Positions 1 to 8,310 of a DNA stretch of 64,000 nucleotides are shown in pieces. Source of the stretch: Actinomadura rayongensis. GTDB lineage: Bacteria > Actinomycetota > Actinomycetes > Streptosporangiales > Streptosporangiaceae. The notes beneath the pieces are model-generated. The model did not search any database. It saw only the letters and a program-made list of their open reading frames with translations, and was not told the DNA's origin. The stretch is taken from contig NZ_WUTW01000001.1 of NCBI RefSeq assembly GCF_009831215.1, positions 915,192-979,191 of the forward strand, in the 5' to 3' direction. Every line of letters begins with the position of its first letter. Position 1 is the first letter of the stretch. The position numbers were made by a program, and so were the translations under genes.

Positions 1-16
1 ACAGTTAAGACATCAC

Positions 17-90
17 CGCGGGGTGGAGCAGTTCGGTAGCTCGCTGGGCTCATAACCCAGAGGTCGCAGGTTCAAATCCTGTCCCCGCTA
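17..90 (+). tRNA. Initiator tRNA-Met (anticodon CAT)
   Basis: A complete cloverleaf can be read. The acceptor arm CGCGGGG pairs with CCCCGC, leaving the first position unpaired (C opposite T), which is an initiator hallmark. The anticodon stem has the three consecutive G-C pairs (GGG/CCC) typical of formyl-methionine tRNA, with CAT in the loop. The T-arm is GCAGG-TTCAAAT-CCTGT. No CCA is encoded. An identical gene lies at 7992-8065. Confidence 0.95.
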
Positions 91-151
91 CGGGTACTGG
101 GTCCGCATGGTCGCGACAAGTCGCTTCCCTGCGGGCCCTTCGCCGTTTTTC

Positions 152-200
152 GGGGGGACGACCCCCCGTGCCCCCCGATGTGGGGGGCTCCGCCCCCCAC
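152..200 (+). terminator. Tandem G/C hairpins after tRNA-Met
   Basis: There are two stem-loops in a row: six G against six C with loop ACGA (152-167), then GTGGGGGG against CCCCCCAC with loop CTCCG (180-200). A T-rich stretch follows at about 220-250. The position downstream of the tRNA fits a terminator. No function has been shown for this sequence. Confidence 0.55.
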
Positions 201-277
201 GCCCCCCGCCCTGTGGTTGCTGTTTTTTGGTGTCTTTTGGTTGTTTGTTGTGAACTTGTCGCGGGGGCTGTTATCGG

Positions 278-1210
278 CTATCTATCGGCGGCTCGGTGGG
301 ACGGAAGCTGACCCTTTTTGAGGTAGGGGAGCAGGTGGTCGAGGGCGGTCGCGGCGTGCCAGGAGGCTACGGGGTGTGCTTCGTCGTTTTTCTGGGCGTC
401 TGCCGTGTCCGAGATGCCGCGGATCACCGCCCAGCCGTGTGCTCGGTCCTCGGTCGCCGCTCGTTCGTGGGATGCCTGGCTCAGGCCGCCCGCTTCCATG
501 TCGACGGCGAGGATCTTGTCGTTGAAGCCCGCCAGGTAGGTGATGATCTCCGCGTCCTCGTCCGCGACCACCGCTTCGCCTGAGCCGATGGGGCCGTGCA
601 GCATGCGCATTTTTCTGGTCGTCCCGTTCGGGTCCTCGGTGTCGAACTCTGCCGGCGCTCGATCGGTGAAGAACGCGTTCACGGCGTGGACCGTGGCGGC
701 GGGGGCCTCCTTTTCCTCGCCTCTGCGCCGGGTGCCTTCGGCGAGTTCCTTGCGCAGGTCGTAATAGACGACTCGCGTCGCTACGACCACGTCGCCGATC
801 TCGACGTCGCGGTGGATTCCTCCGCCGATGCCGACCAGGACGATCACTCCCGGGTCGAAGTGGCGGCGCAGGTTCTCGTAAGCGGCCATCGTGGAGCGCT
901 GGCCTTGGCCCAGTGCCTGGACTGCTGCAACGTTCACGGGTCCCTCGTCCGTTCGCACTGCGCCGGTGCGGAACTGCAGTCCTCCGATCGGTTTCCTTTC
1001 CAAGCCTAGGCGGAGCATCAGCGCCTGGGTCTCCACGCTGAGGATAGTGATGACTCCGACGTCCGCCGACAGCTTTGGCTCGTCGTCCTGTGCGGTCGCT
1101 CGTTGGCCGATGTTGACGACGGGACGGTCGCCCACGGCCGAATTGGTGACCTTCGTCGTGCCGCCGTAGTTCGCGATTCCGTGGATGCGGTTTCGTTCGT
1201 TCATGCTCAC
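278..1210 (-). CDS. Nucleoside phosphorylase/nucleosidase-fold protein with N-terminal signalling-like motif
   Basis: 310 residues. Residues ~52-295 match the purine nucleoside phosphorylase / MTA-SAH nucleosidase fold: a glycine-rich loop GIGGG (~127-131) followed by IGDVVVAT, then VDMEAGG (~236) and RGISDTAD (~264-271), which carry the family's catalytic Glu and Asp positions. The first ~36 residues lie outside the fold and contain NYGGTTKVTNSAVGDRPVVN. A closely similar motif ends the protein encoded just upstream. The GTG start overlaps that gene's TGA by the sequence GTGA, so the two are translationally coupled; an in-frame ATG two codons later is an alternative start. Stand-alone or motif-linked enzymes of this fold occur as effectors in bacterial immune-like systems. 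A defence role here is inference, and the substrate is unknown. Confidence 0.8.
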   Translation of the reverse strand: MSMNERNRIHGIANYGGTTKVTNSAVGDRPVVNIGQRATAQDDEPKLSADVGVITILSVETQALMLRLGLERKPIGGLQFRTGAVRTDEGPVNVAAVQALGQGQRSTMAAYENLRRHFDPGVIVLVGIGGGIHRDVEIGDVVVATRVVYYDLRKELAEGTRRRGEEKEAPAATVHAVNAFFTDRAPAEFDTEDPNGTTRKMRMLHGPIGSGEAVVADEDAEIITYLAGFNDKILAVDMEAGGLSQASHERAATEDRAHGWAVIRGISDTADAQKNDEAHPVASWHAATALDHLLPYLKKGQLPSHRAADR

Positions 1211-2868
1211 GCTCCCTGTGCTGCGATGGTGTTTGAGTTGACCACTGCGTTGTTTCCCACCGCCGAGCCGTTGATCTCCATCTGGCCCATGTTGAGGACC
1301 GCCGCGTTGACGATCATTTCCGCGCGTTCATCGAATCTCGAGGTGTCGACGTCGTGCTTGCGCAAGAAGTCTTCGGTGGCGGTGAGGAGGCGACGTTCGA
1401 TGATTTTCATATGGCCGAGAATGCTAGGTTTGTCGAATGTGGCGAGTTCCCAGTCGACCGCCCGTTCCTCCCGGATGCTGGTCCGGGTCGCGCATTCGGT
1501 GCCGGAAACCGGATCCGTCGAGCGGTCACGGGACGCCCGGGCCATCCTGATGAGCGTCGCCGGTACTTTGATCAGCCGGTACGAGCGCAGGAGGTCTTCG
1601 GGCAGGCAGAGGAACGAGTGGACGAGCGGCGGCAGCCGAGGCCGCTCTTCACCGCGCAAGCGGGTCAGTGCGCACGCCGTGAACTCCAGGCTCAGCGATC
1701 GGGCCTTCAGCGTGACACGAAGGAACACCGTTGTGACGACCTCGCCGTTCGGCGTCGTCCGCATTTCGAGGAAGTGCTGGGCTGGGGAGTGCGGGTCGTC
1801 GATGATCCGGTGGATGATGTCGAGGTCGGTCGCCTTCGCGGGAAGCTCGATCCCCGGACGCAAGTCCTCCTCGGCGATGAAGACCCGGTCGGCGACGTAG
1901 TAGCCCGGCAGCCGGGTGGGGTCGCCGAACCGTCCGATGAGTTTCATCTCCTTCCGCAGGTGCTCGACGAGTTGGTGCGCGGAGAACGGCGGCTCCACGA
2001 ACTCCCGACGCATTTCGGGAAGGCCGGATGGTCGGTCGACATGGAAGAGCTGGATGGTCAGCGGCGGTTGCCAGCGGTGGACCAGCTCACCCGCGCCGCG
2101 AAAGAAGCGCCGACTGGGGGCGTCTTCCTCGATATACCTCGTCTCGTCGTCCTTCTTACGCGGCCTGCGCAGCACGACGACGGGGTGCTCCTGCTGCTTC
2201 TCGATGGCCCGAAGGCGACGCCGCGCACCGAAGCCGAACCGGCCGGGCCGATAGTGGTCCACGATCTCGGGGATCGCGCTCACCAGGGTTAAGGCCGATA
2301 GCAGGAACGCTGACTCGATGATCGCGCTTCCACCATGGGGGGCCGTCGTGAGTATGTCGGCGACGACGAGCGCGGTCGCCGATCCGCAGCCGGCTAGGTT
2401 GATCTTGAGCCATTGCGAACTCTCTTTGAGGCGGTTGTCGGTCTCGAGTTCTCCGTAGGTCTTGTGGCGGTGGAACAGGGTCGCCCACCAGGTCGCGATC
2501 CGGTCGCGCAGGACGATGGGCGCGTGTCGGGCCGCCTTCGCGCCGCACCCGATGAGGACGAGCGCGCCGATCGCGAGGAGCGCCGCGGACGGGCACCATG
2601 CGACGCCGCCGACGAGAACGAGCACGGTGAGCACTTCCCGCATCGTGTCCAAGCACCAGTAGTGCCAGGCGTGCGCCGCGAGATCCGCAAGATCGAAGCC
2701 GTAAGAGGGCGCGACACGGTGCCGGGCGTCGACCAGCACGTCATGGACGATCGTGTCGCGGAACTCGAGATCTCGGCGGGCGTCGGCGCGCAGGCGGCGT
2801 TGGGCGTGGGCGCTGTCGCGGGAAGGGGAGGCGTGGGTCTTGGTGAGGGAGACGGGTGGATGGTCCAT
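1207..2868 (-). CDS. Four-helix membrane protein with C-terminal signalling-like motif
   Basis: 553 residues, no family recognised. Predicted membrane helices lie at ~77-93, 95-110, 158-176 and 182-203. A soluble, probably cytoplasmic region of ~330 residues follows and resembles no domain I can name. The last ~28 residues contain NMGQMEINGSAVGNNAVVN, which matches the N-terminal motif of the coupled nucleosidase-like protein (shared N-x-G, V/I, SAVG and VVN positions). It is the first gene of the operon, with GGGGG seven bases before the ATG, and is divergent from the Nudix regulator across a gap holding two palindromes. Codons CTA and TTA occur in helix four (TTA at 2290-2292), rare in this genome. 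By position it could be the sensor or anchor of the pair, but that is inference. Confidence 0.75.
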   Translation of the reverse strand: MDHPPVSLTKTHASPSRDSAHAQRRLRADARRDLEFRDTIVHDVLVDARHRVAPSYGFDLADLAAHAWHYWCLDTMREVLTVLVLVGGVAWCPSAALLAIGALVLIGCGAKAARHAPIVLRDRIATWWATLFHRHKTYGELETDNRLKESSQWLKINLAGCGSATALVVADILTTAPHGGSAIIESAFLLSALTLVSAIPEIVDHYRPGRFGFGARRRLRAIEKQQEHPVVVLRRPRKKDDETRYIEEDAPSRRFFRGAGELVHRWQPPLTIQLFHVDRPSGLPEMRREFVEPPFSAHQLVEHLRKEMKLIGRFGDPTRLPGYYVADRVFIAEEDLRPGIELPAKATDLDIIHRIIDDPHSPAQHFLEMRTTPNGEVVTTVFLRVTLKARSLSLEFTACALTRLRGEERPRLPPLVHSFLCLPEDLLRSYRLIKVPATLIRMARASRDRSTDPVSGTECATRTSIREERAVDWELATFDKPSILGHMKIIERRLLTATEDFLRKHDVDTSRFDERAEMIVNAAVLNMGQMEINGSAVGNNAVVNSNTIAAQGA

Positions 2869-2885
2869 GCGACCCCCAAGGCTCT

Positions 2886-2906
2886 TTAAGGTCGGACTGA
2901 CCTTAA
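2886..2906. promoter_or_regulatory. Palindrome 1 in divergent promoter region
   Basis: Perfect inverted repeat TTAAGGTC-N5-GACCTTAA. It is AT-rich against a very GC-rich background and has the same 8-5-8 geometry as the second palindrome, centred 34 bases away (about three helical turns). It sits between the membrane/nucleosidase operon and the Nudix/winged-helix gene. It is a likely operator for that regulator. Confidence 0.7.
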
Positions 2907-2919
2907 GTCGCGCGCTAGC

Positions 2920-2940
2920 TTAAAGTCAAGCTGACTTTAA
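2920..2940. promoter_or_regulatory. Palindrome 2 in divergent promoter region
   Basis: Perfect inverted repeat TTAAAGTC-N5-GACTTTAA; the arms extend one further pair inward. Its right arm ends 12 bases before the ATG of the Nudix/winged-helix gene, so occupation would block that gene's translation-initiation region or promoter. Together with palindrome 1 the consensus is TTAARGTC-N5-GACYTTAA. Confidence 0.7.
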
Positions 2941-2952
2941 ATAGGGGGATCG

Positions 2953-3663
2953 ATGTTCGGTGCGTCCACGCGGCTGGGGCCGGTGTCGCCCGCCGCCGTG
3001 ACCGTAGACCTGGTGATCCTCACGGTCCGTGAGGAGACGCTGCACGTTTTGCTGGTCGAGCGGGGGAACGAGCCGTATCGAGGGCTGCCGGCGCTGCCCG
3101 GCGGTTATGTCCGCGACGGCGAGACGCTTGACGCCGCCGCCGCCCGAGAACTGGAAGAGGAGACCGGGCTCGCGGCGCACCGGCTCCATCTGGAGCAGCT
3201 CCGGGCGTATGGGGAGCCGGGACGTGATCCGCGCGGACGGATCTTCACGGTCGCCTATCTCGCTCTCGGGCCGGAGCTCCCGGTCCCGTCTGCGGGGACG
3301 GACGCGCGCGCCGCGCTATGGAGTCCGGTCGGGCCGTACCTGGACGGCACCGACGAACTCGCCTTCGATCACGGCATGATCCTGCGGGACGCGTTGGAGC
3401 GAGCTCGGTCTCAACTCGAGTACACGACCGTCGCGGCGGCGTTCTGCGCCGAGCCGTTCACCGTTGCCGACCTGCGCCGGGTCTATGAGGTCGTCTGGGA
3501 TGTTCCCCTGGATCCGAGCAACTTCCGCCGCAAGGTCACCAAGGCGGAGCGGTTCCTCGTGCCGACGGGTGATCGGCGGATGCTCGACGCGGGGCGCCCG
3601 GCCGCGCTCTATCGGCGCGGTGACGCCCGTCTGCTCTCGCCACCGTTGCTGCGTGGGGCCTGA
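2953..3663 (+). CDS. Nudix hydrolase with C-terminal winged-helix domain (NrtR-like regulator)
   Basis: 236 residues. Residues ~12-140 form a Nudix domain with a complete Nudix box: G-x5-E-x7-REL-x-EE-x-GL, around residues 50-72. Residues ~150-225 (TVADLRRVYEVVWDVPLDPSNFRRKV) match the winged-helix tail of NrtR-type regulators, which respond to ADP-ribose or related nucleotides. Many such regulators have lost the catalytic box; this one looks intact, so it may still hydrolyse a nucleotide. RBS AGGGGG precedes the ATG. Its stop codon abuts that of the convergent PucR-type gene. The paired palindromes upstream suggest autoregulation and control of the divergent membrane/nucleosidase operon (inference). 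Confidence 0.85.
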   Translation: MFGASTRLGPVSPAAVTVDLVILTVREETLHVLLVERGNEPYRGLPALPGGYVRDGETLDAAAARELEEETGLAAHRLHLEQLRAYGEPGRDPRGRIFTVAYLALGPELPVPSAGTDARAALWSPVGPYLDGTDELAFDHGMILRDALERARSQLEYTTVAAAFCAEPFTVADLRRVYEVVWDVPLDPSNFRRKVTKAERFLVPTGDRRMLDAGRPAALYRRGDARLLSPPLLRGA

Positions 3664-7946: not shown

Positions 7947-7991
7947 TCCGTTTGCGTAAGCCTCTCCGCCCCCATAGAGTTAAGACATCAC

Positions 7992-8065
7992 CGCGGGGTG
8001 GAGCAGTTCGGTAGCTCGCTGGGCTCATAACCCAGAGGTCGCAGGTTCAAATCCTGTCCCCGCTA
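7992..8065 (+). tRNA. Initiator tRNA-Met (anticodon CAT), second copy
   Basis: Identical in all 74 bases to the gene at 17-90, with the same unpaired first acceptor position and the GGG/CCC anticodon stem. It lies 45 bases after the K+ channel stop codon, on the same strand. Confidence 0.95.
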
Positions 8066-8126
8066 CGGGTACTGGGTCCGCATGGTCGCGACAAGTCGCT
8101 TCCATGTGGGCCCTTCGCCGTTTATC

Positions 8127-8175
8127 GGGGGGACTACCCCCCGTGCCCCCCGATGTGGGGGGCTCCGCCCCCCAC
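8127..8175 (+). terminator. Tandem G/C hairpins after second tRNA-Met
   Basis: Same two stem-loops as after the first tRNA: six G/C pairs with loop ACTA, then GTGGGGGG/CCCCCCAC with loop CTCCG, followed by a T-rich run near 8185-8210. The loop change from ACGA to ACTA keeps the stem intact. Confidence 0.55.
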
Positions 8176-8310
8176 TCCCCCCTCCTTTTGGGGTTTTTCT
8201 CCGTTTTTTGGCTGTGATCTGCTTGCTTTGTCGTGGGAAATCGCCTCGTTGGCGATGGGCGTCCGGGTAGTTTGGCCGCGAGTTGTCGACATGGTGCGGG
8301 GTCTGGGGCG

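What the first reader, a model, noticed from the sequence alone, without database searches (positions are those of the whole stretch)
2881..2952. Two matching 8-5-8 palindromes between a Nudix regulator and the candidate system
TTAAGGTC-N5-GACCTTAA and TTAAAGTC-N5-GACTTTAA are spaced 34 bases centre to centre, about three helical turns, in the only AT-rich stretch of the divergent promoter. The adjacent gene encodes a Nudix domain fused to a winged helix, the NrtR layout that senses ADP-ribose-type nucleotides. This suggests the membrane/nucleosidase operon is induced or released when a nucleotide metabolite changes.
Basis: partly seen in the sequence, partly recalled or inferred. Interest (0 to 1): 0.62.

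Follow-up and report, generated by a model that had tools for sequence, protein, structure and literature searches.

The report
Twin repressor sites guarding nucleosidase operon
Two palindromes that overlap one promoter are kept beside the same Nudix-type regulator in many actinomycetes, and they probably switch off a membrane-protein/nucleosidase pair whose two proteins carry matching amyloid-like tails, a layout resembling bacterial immune or cell-death systems.

Summary
Two 8-5-8 palindromes lie at 2886-2906 and 2920-2940; genome-wide they are the only sites with fewer than 3 mismatches. Collected without using the motif, 68 of 72 orthologous Nudix/winged-helix loci carry such a pair, nearly always 33 or 34 bp apart; the same search found 2 pairs elsewhere in 473,004 bp of those loci. 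The spacing has a better explanation than helical phase: the proximal palindrome holds a TTGAC -35 element (69 of 69) and the distal one a TANNNT -10 element (68 of 69) of the divergent operon, spacer 16-18 bp. A bound repressor would cover both. The operon encodes an unclassified membrane protein and an MTAN-like nucleosidase. Their adjoining ends carry short motifs that match better within a locus than between loci, as in amyloid signalling pairs, though the window's own pair scores poorly. The regulator has the NrtR architecture; six key Nudix-box residues are invariant in 38 of 38 sequences, the last glycine in 30. DNA binding, ligand, amyloid formation and any anti-phage role are untested inference.

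The parts
2886..2906 (.). distal operator (relative to the Nudix gene), TTAAGGTC-N5-GACCTTAA
   Evidence: such a pair in 68 of 72 orthologous loci
2920..2940 (.). proximal operator, TTAAAGTC-N5-GACTTTAA
   Evidence: such a pair in 68 of 72 orthologous loci
2924..2929 (-). predicted -35 element (TTGACT) of the membrane/nucleosidase operon, inside the proximal operator
   Evidence: TTGACN at this place in 69 of 69 loci, including spacer bases AA that the palindrome's symmetry does not require
2900..2905 (-). predicted -10 element (TAAGGT) of the same promoter, inside the distal operator; 18-bp spacer here
   Evidence: TANNNT at this place in 68 of 69 loci
2953..3663 (+). Nudix plus NrtR-type winged-helix regulator, 236 aa
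   Evidence: PF00293 and PF21906 above cut-off; Nudix-box residues G51, E57, R65, E66, E69, E70 in 38 of 38 aligned sequences (window plus 37 of the 44 relatives on hand), last glycine G72 in 30 of 38
1207..2868 (-). membrane protein, 553 aa, putative sensor; no Pfam, NCBIfam or PADLOC family
   Evidence: two hydrophobic segments; AlphaFold2 mean pLDDT 87.2
1231..1311 (-). C-terminal amyloid-signalling-like motif of the membrane protein (about residues 520-546)
   Evidence: pattern shared with the nucleosidase N-terminus across loci, weak for this pair itself; low pLDDT tail
278..1210 (-). PNP/MTAN-superfamily nucleosidase, 310 aa; its start overlaps the stop of the preceding gene
   Evidence: PF01048; PADLOC PDC-M60C and effector PN-superfamily; MTAN fold; E60, E239, R264, D268 invariant in 37 of 37 aligned sequences
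1106..1186 (-). N-terminal amyloid-signalling-like motif of the nucleosidase (about residues 9-35)
   Evidence: pLDDT block means 41-54 over residues 1-40

Best explanation
The palindromes are two operators of the adjacent NrtR-type Nudix regulator. They lie on the -35 and the -10 of the divergent promoter, so regulator dimers bound there would keep RNA polymerase off the membrane-protein/nucleosidase operon and, being next to the regulator's own start, would probably also autoregulate. A nucleotide-type metabolite bound (and, given the conserved Nudix box, possibly hydrolysed) by the Nudix domain would release the repressor. Once made, the membrane protein would sense a trigger and template, through its C-terminal motif, the matching N-terminal motif of the nucleosidase, assembling and activating it to cleave an adenine nucleoside or nucleotide and stop the cell. 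Shown: site conservation and geometry, gene content, motif matching across loci, conservation of catalytic residues. Inferred: binding, repression, ligand, amyloid assembly, substrate and biological role.
For: Sites: 68 of 72 motif-independent orthologue loci have the pair, 2 pairs elsewhere in 473,004 bp of the same loci. Motif-first: 37 sites in 26 of 298 genomes against 4 control sites, my count of the listing; 24 of the 25 non-own loci opened have the Nudix gene next to the site. Sensor-first, in named genomes: of 54 loci, 43 have an adjacent divergent Nudix gene and 42 of these the pair. Promoter overlay: TTGACN 69 of 69, TANNNT 68 of 69, spacing 34 x40, 33 x28, 32 x1; the proximal spacer AA is 69 of 69 while its mirror positions are T in 37 and 17 of 69. 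Own-genome scan: nothing else under 3 mismatches. Motif pairs: within-locus score 77.3 against 54.0 (46 loci) and 74.0 against 46.9 (44 loci), none of 20,000 permutations reaching either; two control segment pairs show no excess. Nucleosidase: MTAN fold and conserved catalytic residues.
Against: No binding, expression or ligand data exist here. Four of 72 orthologue loci lack a pair (L099 and L116 have no site, L118 and L120 one). L174 has a pair without a Nudix hit, and L190 a weak pair (7 mismatches in all) without one. L029 has a site with no Nudix gene within 1.5 kb, though one lies about 2.1 kb off on that contig. Only 16 of 46 and 15 of 44 sensors score best with their own effector, and the window's own pair scores 42, below the between-loci mean of 54. 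The permutations ignore relatedness, and near-duplicates were kept. L069, L115 and L122 keep the operators without a nucleosidase hit in the stretch read. The Nudix box's last glycine is replaced in 8 of 38. Nothing here tests phage defence.
Confidence: 0.72

Rival explanations
1. The palindromes belong to an NAD-metabolism regulon of a canonical NrtR, and the nucleosidase operon is only one member.
For: Same domain architecture as NrtR; among the best PDB matches are 3gz5 (recalled as Shewanella NrtR; listed only as MutT/nudix family protein) and AraR. Orthologous sites often have 1-4 mismatches, so degenerate further sites could be hidden.
Against: No other site under 3 mismatches in the genome; of the 6 sites with 3 mismatches, 4 lie inside reading frames and the 2 intergenic ones adjoin LCAT-like, resolvase and DndB genes, not NAD genes; NCBIfam's NtrR equivalog scores 108.5 bits against a cut-off of 400; the mycobacterial NrtR site is a different palindrome (PMC6800001, passages).
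Confidence: 0.07
2. The regulator is a local repressor as proposed, but the operon is a metabolic nucleoside-salvage or membrane-stress module and the terminal motifs are ordinary interaction tails, not amyloids.
Against: The motifs lie at adjoining termini of adjacent genes, are modelled with low confidence as unstructured tails, and track each other after correction for nucleosidase divergence (partial r 0.58); PADLOC effector models match 37 of 37 nucleosidases.
Confidence: 0.22
3. The regulator activates the operon (the sites are activator sites).
For: Some Nudix-winged-helix proteins may regulate positively (recalled, from no call).
Against: The sites cover both -35 and -10, the usual geometry of steric repression; activators usually bind upstream of -35 (established knowledge).
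Confidence: 0.08
4. The conserved blocks are only promoter elements; the palindromy is incidental.
For: TTGAC and TANNNT account for two of the four half-sites.
Against: The other two half-sites are conserved too (distal left TT and GT 96-100% of 66, proximal right GAC 98-100% of 66), and 42 of the 44 pairs found at 54 sensor loci lie where the Nudix gene is adjacent.
Confidence: 0.04

Closest known systems
NrtR, Nudix-related transcriptional regulators of NAD metabolism (PF21906; e.g. M. smegmatis NrtR, PMC6800001, passages)
   Same: Nudix domain plus C-terminal winged helix; palindromic site between the regulator and the neighbouring operon.
   Different: Different palindrome; two sites per promoter; key Nudix-box residues kept instead of degenerate; target is a membrane-protein/nucleosidase pair, and no second target was found in the genome at fewer than 3 mismatches.
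Bacterial amyloid signalling sequences (BASS) and fungal PNP_UDP-associated motifs (PUASM; PMC8086366, PMC12261475, PMC9815663, passages)
   Same: Matched short motifs at the ends of a receptor and an effector encoded by adjacent genes; PNP_UDP effector as in PUASM systems.
   Different: The receptor is a membrane protein without a recognised family and no NLR domain hit; the motif sits C-terminal on the receptor and N-terminal on the effector, the reverse of the orientation described in those passages; membership in BASS 1-10 was not tested.
PNP-superfamily immune effectors, ATP nucleosidases of CBASS and Detocs (PMC9966839 and PMC10197012, passages)
   Same: PNP_UDP nucleosidase as predicted effector; PADLOC effector PN-superfamily model matches 37 of 37.
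   Different: Of the two neighbours scanned in PADLOC, the membrane protein has no hit and the Nudix regulator only one to PDC-S07; the rest of the window was not scanned; substrate unknown.
Conflict systems with PNPase effectors in multicellular bacteria (Kaur et al., PMC8195603, passages)
   Same: PNPase effectors in multi-gene systems.
   Different: The Pfam scan of the three proteins lists no adaptor domain of the kinds described there; whether Pfam holds all of them was not checked.

Membership tests
NrtR regulators | Nudix domain fused to NrtR_WHD | tested here: met
   PF00293 62.5 bits and PF21906 54.7 bits, both above cut-off
NrtR regulators | palindromic site in the promoter shared with the neighbouring gene | tested here: met
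   68 of 72 orthologue loci
NrtR regulators | control of NAD biosynthesis genes (canonical NrtR) | tested here: inconclusive
   no further site under 3 mismatches in the genome; the 2 intergenic 3-mismatch sites do not adjoin NAD genes; more degenerate sites were not sought
NrtR regulators | score over NCBIfam's NtrR equivalog cut-off | tested here: not met
   108.5 bits against 400
NrtR regulators | release from DNA by ADP-ribose | not testable with these tools
   needs gel shift with ligands
Amyloid signalling receptor/effector pairs | similar short motifs at termini of proteins of adjacent genes | tested here: met
   within-locus score exceeds between-locus score in two overlapping sets; weak for the window's own pair (42)
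Amyloid signalling receptor/effector pairs | NLR receptor and Bell-domain effector (BASS as described) | tested here: not met
   no such domain in the Pfam scan of the window proteins nor among the families shown for 49 sensor sequences (25 of 38 families shown, each in one member)
Amyloid signalling receptor/effector pairs | match to BASS 1-10 profiles | not tested
   profiles not on hand
Amyloid signalling receptor/effector pairs | fibril formation and cross-seeding | not testable with these tools
   needs peptides or cells
PNP/MTAN nucleosidases | PNP_UDP_1 domain, fold and catalytic residues | tested here: met
   67.2 bits, above cut-off; Foldseek E 1.9e-19 to MTAN; E60, E239, D268 invariant in 37 of 37 and aligned with MTAN residues
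Immune ATP nucleosidases | hydrolysis of ATP on phage infection | not testable with these tools
   only family-level similarity

The most novel reading that the evidence does not exclude
A previously undescribed inducible immune or cell-death system of Actinomycetota: a nucleotide-sensing, possibly nucleotide-hydrolysing NrtR-type repressor keeps an amyloid-signalled membrane receptor and its nucleosidase effector silent, so that a disturbed nucleotide pool both releases the system and, through the Nudix activity, resets it.
Probability: 0.4. Interest if true: 0.78.

Novelty: new variant of a known kind. Interest (0 to 1): 0.62.

Why it matters
It ties a metabolite-sensing repressor family known for NAD control to what looks like an amyloid-signalling nucleosidase effector, and gives a compact promoter (two operators on -35 and -10) in which the ligand question is directly testable. 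If right, it would show that such effectors are kept off transcriptionally and suggest what metabolic change lets them on; it would also extend amyloid signalling pairs to membrane receptors that are not NLRs. In my literature searches no listed paper describes this combination by its title or abstract start; those searches cover only the held open-licence library.

Tried and rejected
Helical-phase explanation of the spacing: not needed once the promoter overlay was seen, but not excluded. NAD regulon: disfavoured, not excluded. Promoter of the regulator itself: a TANNNT just after the proximal palindrome is missing in 26 of 69 loci, so it stays open. Sensor fold: Foldseek gives no match with E under 0.001; VIA-align 2, a second look at Foldseek's matches, gives Z 6.4-6.5 to START-like and PR-10 folds for about residues 260-508, below what its notes call safe, so no fold is claimed. 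Sensor by sequence: single weak Pfam hits only among 49 sequences (25 of 38 families shown), no PADLOC family, one PDB hit at E 0.37. Alternative sensors were first thought unrelated; the one compared (L097) is a distant homologue (hhalign probability 99.5). A plasmid search found one partial sensor match. A palindrome count without a consensus (7 or 8 of 8 arm positions) found hits in 33 of 81 loci, so most orthologous sites are imperfect. Ligand: no way to test.

Full report
Observation. With up to 3 mismatches the window has these two sites and no other, against 0.01 expected from shuffles. In the whole genome (6.87 Mb, 15 contigs, 97.87% complete) they are the only sites with fewer than 3 mismatches; the 6 sites with 3 mismatches are no more than the 9 of the reversed control. 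Of those 6, 4 lie inside reading frames by a simple ORF call, and the 2 intergenic ones adjoin an LCAT-like hydrolase gene, and a resolvase and a DndB gene.

Conservation, three ways. (1) Motif first: of 298 family genomes scanned with at most 1 mismatch, 26 have a site, 37 sites by my count of the listing, against 4 for the control pattern. Of the 25 non-own loci opened (one per genome), 24 have an orthologue of the regulator beside the site and 22 a homologue of the membrane protein; L029 has neither within 1.5 kb, although a regulator orthologue lies about 2.1 kb off on the same contig. (2) Regulator first: 155 of 298 genomes have a match at E 1e-70 or better. I took all 72 non-own places with E 4.5e-83 or better and 8 of the next 10. 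Of the 72, 68 carry two palindromes 32-34 bp apart before the gene; L099 and L116 have no site, and L118 and L120 have one. The same search found 2 pairs elsewhere in 473,004 bp of these loci. The pattern (up to 4 mismatches per site) was loosened after looking at the sites, so that background count is the control to trust. (3) Sensor first, in a different, named collection: of 54 loci (Actinomadura, Nonomuraea, Nocardiopsis, Herbidospora, Lentzea, Saccharothrix, Micromonospora, Actinoplanes and others), 43 have a divergent Nudix gene within 700 bp, and 42 of these have the pair; the exception, L186, has CGTC-N5-GACG-like variants, read by eye. Of the other 11, L174 has a pair with no Nudix hit, L190 a weak one (7 mismatches in all), L188 was misplaced by the script (its sensor match begins late) and has a 64%-identical Nudix gene with variant sites by eye, and 8 have no pair. 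The three sets overlap in species and are not independent.

Why the spacing. Over 69 loci (68 and the window) the spacing is 34 bp in 40, 33 in 28 and 32 in 1 (an earlier search free between 22 and 59 bp gave 34 in 39, 33 in 29, 32 in 1 and 24 in 1 of 70). Read on the strand of the divergent operon, the left half of the proximal palindrome is TTGACN in 69 of 69 and the right half of the distal palindrome is TANNNT in 68 of 69, with a spacer of 16-18 bp. Part of this lies in the palindrome pattern itself, but part does not: the two bases after the proximal GTC are AA in 69 of 69, whereas their mirror positions are T in only 37 and 17 of 69; and the base giving the A of the -10 is conserved in 68 of 69, against 28 of 69 at its mirror position. 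The two operators therefore coincide with the -35 and -10 of a single sigma70-type promoter, and occupancy of either would block it. Repression is inferred from this geometry. The regulator's own promoter is less clear.

The regulator. It has a Nudix domain and an NrtR winged helix. The Nudix-box residues G51, E57, R65, E66, E69 and E70 are the same in 38 of 38 aligned sequences (the window and 37 of 44 relatives on hand); the last glycine, G72, is kept in 30 of 38. M. smegmatis NrtR has a degenerate box and no detectable ADP-ribose hydrolase activity, yet ADP-ribose releases it from DNA; its site is GTTTTCGA-N7-TCGAAAAC (PMC6800001, passages). A nucleotide ligand is thus plausible here, possibly one that is consumed. 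The genome has two further NrtR_WHD genes; no nucleosidase gene was noticed in the ORF lists around them (read by eye). In 10 lower-identity relatives that I grouped by eye (L135, L137, L138, L140-L146), 8 have a PNP nucleosidase match just downstream on the same strand, so the link between such regulators and PNP enzymes may go deeper than this promoter.

The operon. The 553-aa membrane protein has no Pfam, NCBIfam or PADLOC family; scans of 49 sequences of its family found single weak Pfam hits and no PADLOC family. The AlphaFold2 model (mean pLDDT 87.2) shows long helices followed by a mixed alpha/beta domain; resemblance of about residues 260-508 to START-like folds is too weak to claim. 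The 310-aa second protein is a PNP/MTAN-type nucleosidase, with E60, E239, R264 and D268 invariant in 37 of 37; E60, E239 and D268 align with the corresponding E, ME and SD residues of MTAN, two of which are altered in entries titled Glu12Gln and Asp197Asn (that all three are catalytic is recalled). PADLOC effector models match it and 37 of 37 alignment members. PNP_UDP domains have been described as immune ATP nucleosidases (PMC10197012 and PMC9966839, passages); whether this one cleaves ATP is unknown.

Matched tails. The membrane protein's C-terminus and the nucleosidase's N-terminus share a pattern close to NxGIxNxGGxxxxxxSAVGxxAxVN. The pattern drifts between loci and the partners tend to drift together: in L131, L127, L124, L097 and L107 the two tails are nearly identical to each other and differ from those of most other loci. 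Over 46 loci the local alignment score is 77.3 within and 54.0 between loci, and none of 20,000 permutations reaches it; two control segment pairs show no excess. Over 44 named loci it is 74.0 against 46.9, with a partial correlation of 0.58 between the two tails after removing nucleosidase divergence. Against this: only 16 of 46 and 15 of 44 sensors score best with their own effector, the window's own pair scores 42, below the between-locus mean, near-duplicates were kept and permutations ignore relatedness. Both tails are modelled with low confidence. Bacterial amyloid signalling motifs were identified in just such neighbouring termini, of Bell effectors and NLRs (PMC8086366, passages), and fungal PNP_UDP effectors carry amyloid motifs of their own, tested with peptides and in Podospora (PMC9815663, passages).

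Variation. In L090, L092, L096, L097, L103-L105, L107, L117, L119 and L123 the sensor hit is absent or weak while a PNP match at 29-33% identity lies further along. The genes in between were listed for L090, L092, L096, L097, L103, L107 and L119: a large protein, with a tail like that of the PNP, stands there, and the one compared (L097) is a distant homologue of the sensor (hhalign probability 99.5). L083 has a further such pair that tblastn missed. A 220-270-aa protein with one hydrophobic segment precedes several of them; the two versions scanned have no Pfam family. L069, L115 and L122 keep the operators with that protein but no nucleosidase hit in the stretch read. The operators thus follow the regulator while the cargo changes.

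Verdict. A well-supported operator pair of a local NrtR-type regulator, placed on a single promoter, controlling what is probably an amyloid-signalled nucleosidase module. The regulatory site is a new member of a known kind; the combination is a new variant that I did not find described (searches, 89 of the held library only). Mechanism beyond the DNA geometry and motif pairing is inference.

Noticed in passing
window 3-216 and 7978-8191: A 214-nt direct repeat (96% identical) holding a tRNA-Met gene, start-to-start 7,975 bp, flanks the system together with proline dehydrogenase and aldehyde dehydrogenase genes. Of 51 named loci scanned, tRNA-Met also lies within about 200 bp of the nucleosidase gene in L147 and L148 (Actinomadura), hinting at a tRNA-linked insertion or duplication site.
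   Followed up: partly
L135, L138, L140, L142-L146: Lower-identity relatives of the regulator have a PNP nucleosidase match just downstream on the same strand (8 of 10 grouped by eye); some have different palindromes upstream, such as TTTATGTC-N5-GACAGTAA in L138.
   Followed up: partly
L069, L083, L090, L097, L107, L115, L119, L122: A 220-270-aa protein lies directly behind the operators in these loci, in L069, L115 and L122 without any nucleosidase hit; one hydrophobic segment in the six checked, no Pfam family in the two scanned.
   Followed up: partly
L099 and L116: Regulator orthologues of 70-72% identity without operators; a partial sensor-like match (25-26% identity) lies downstream of the gene.
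   Followed up: no
G000:C10:352982-353155 (L201) and G000:C1:1535974-1536117 (L202): Two more NrtR-type winged-helix genes in the same genome, the second beside a gamma-glutamyltransferase-like gene (named by recall from its sequence); no nucleosidase noticed in the ORF lists.
   Followed up: partly
L100: Gene order reversed: nucleosidase first, then a membrane protein whose C-terminal tail resembles the nucleosidase N-terminus by eye.
   Followed up: no
L008 (G000:C11, around 282898): A resolvase gene and a DndB-family DNA-sulfur-modification gene face away from an intergenic stretch holding a chance-level 3-mismatch site.
   Followed up: no
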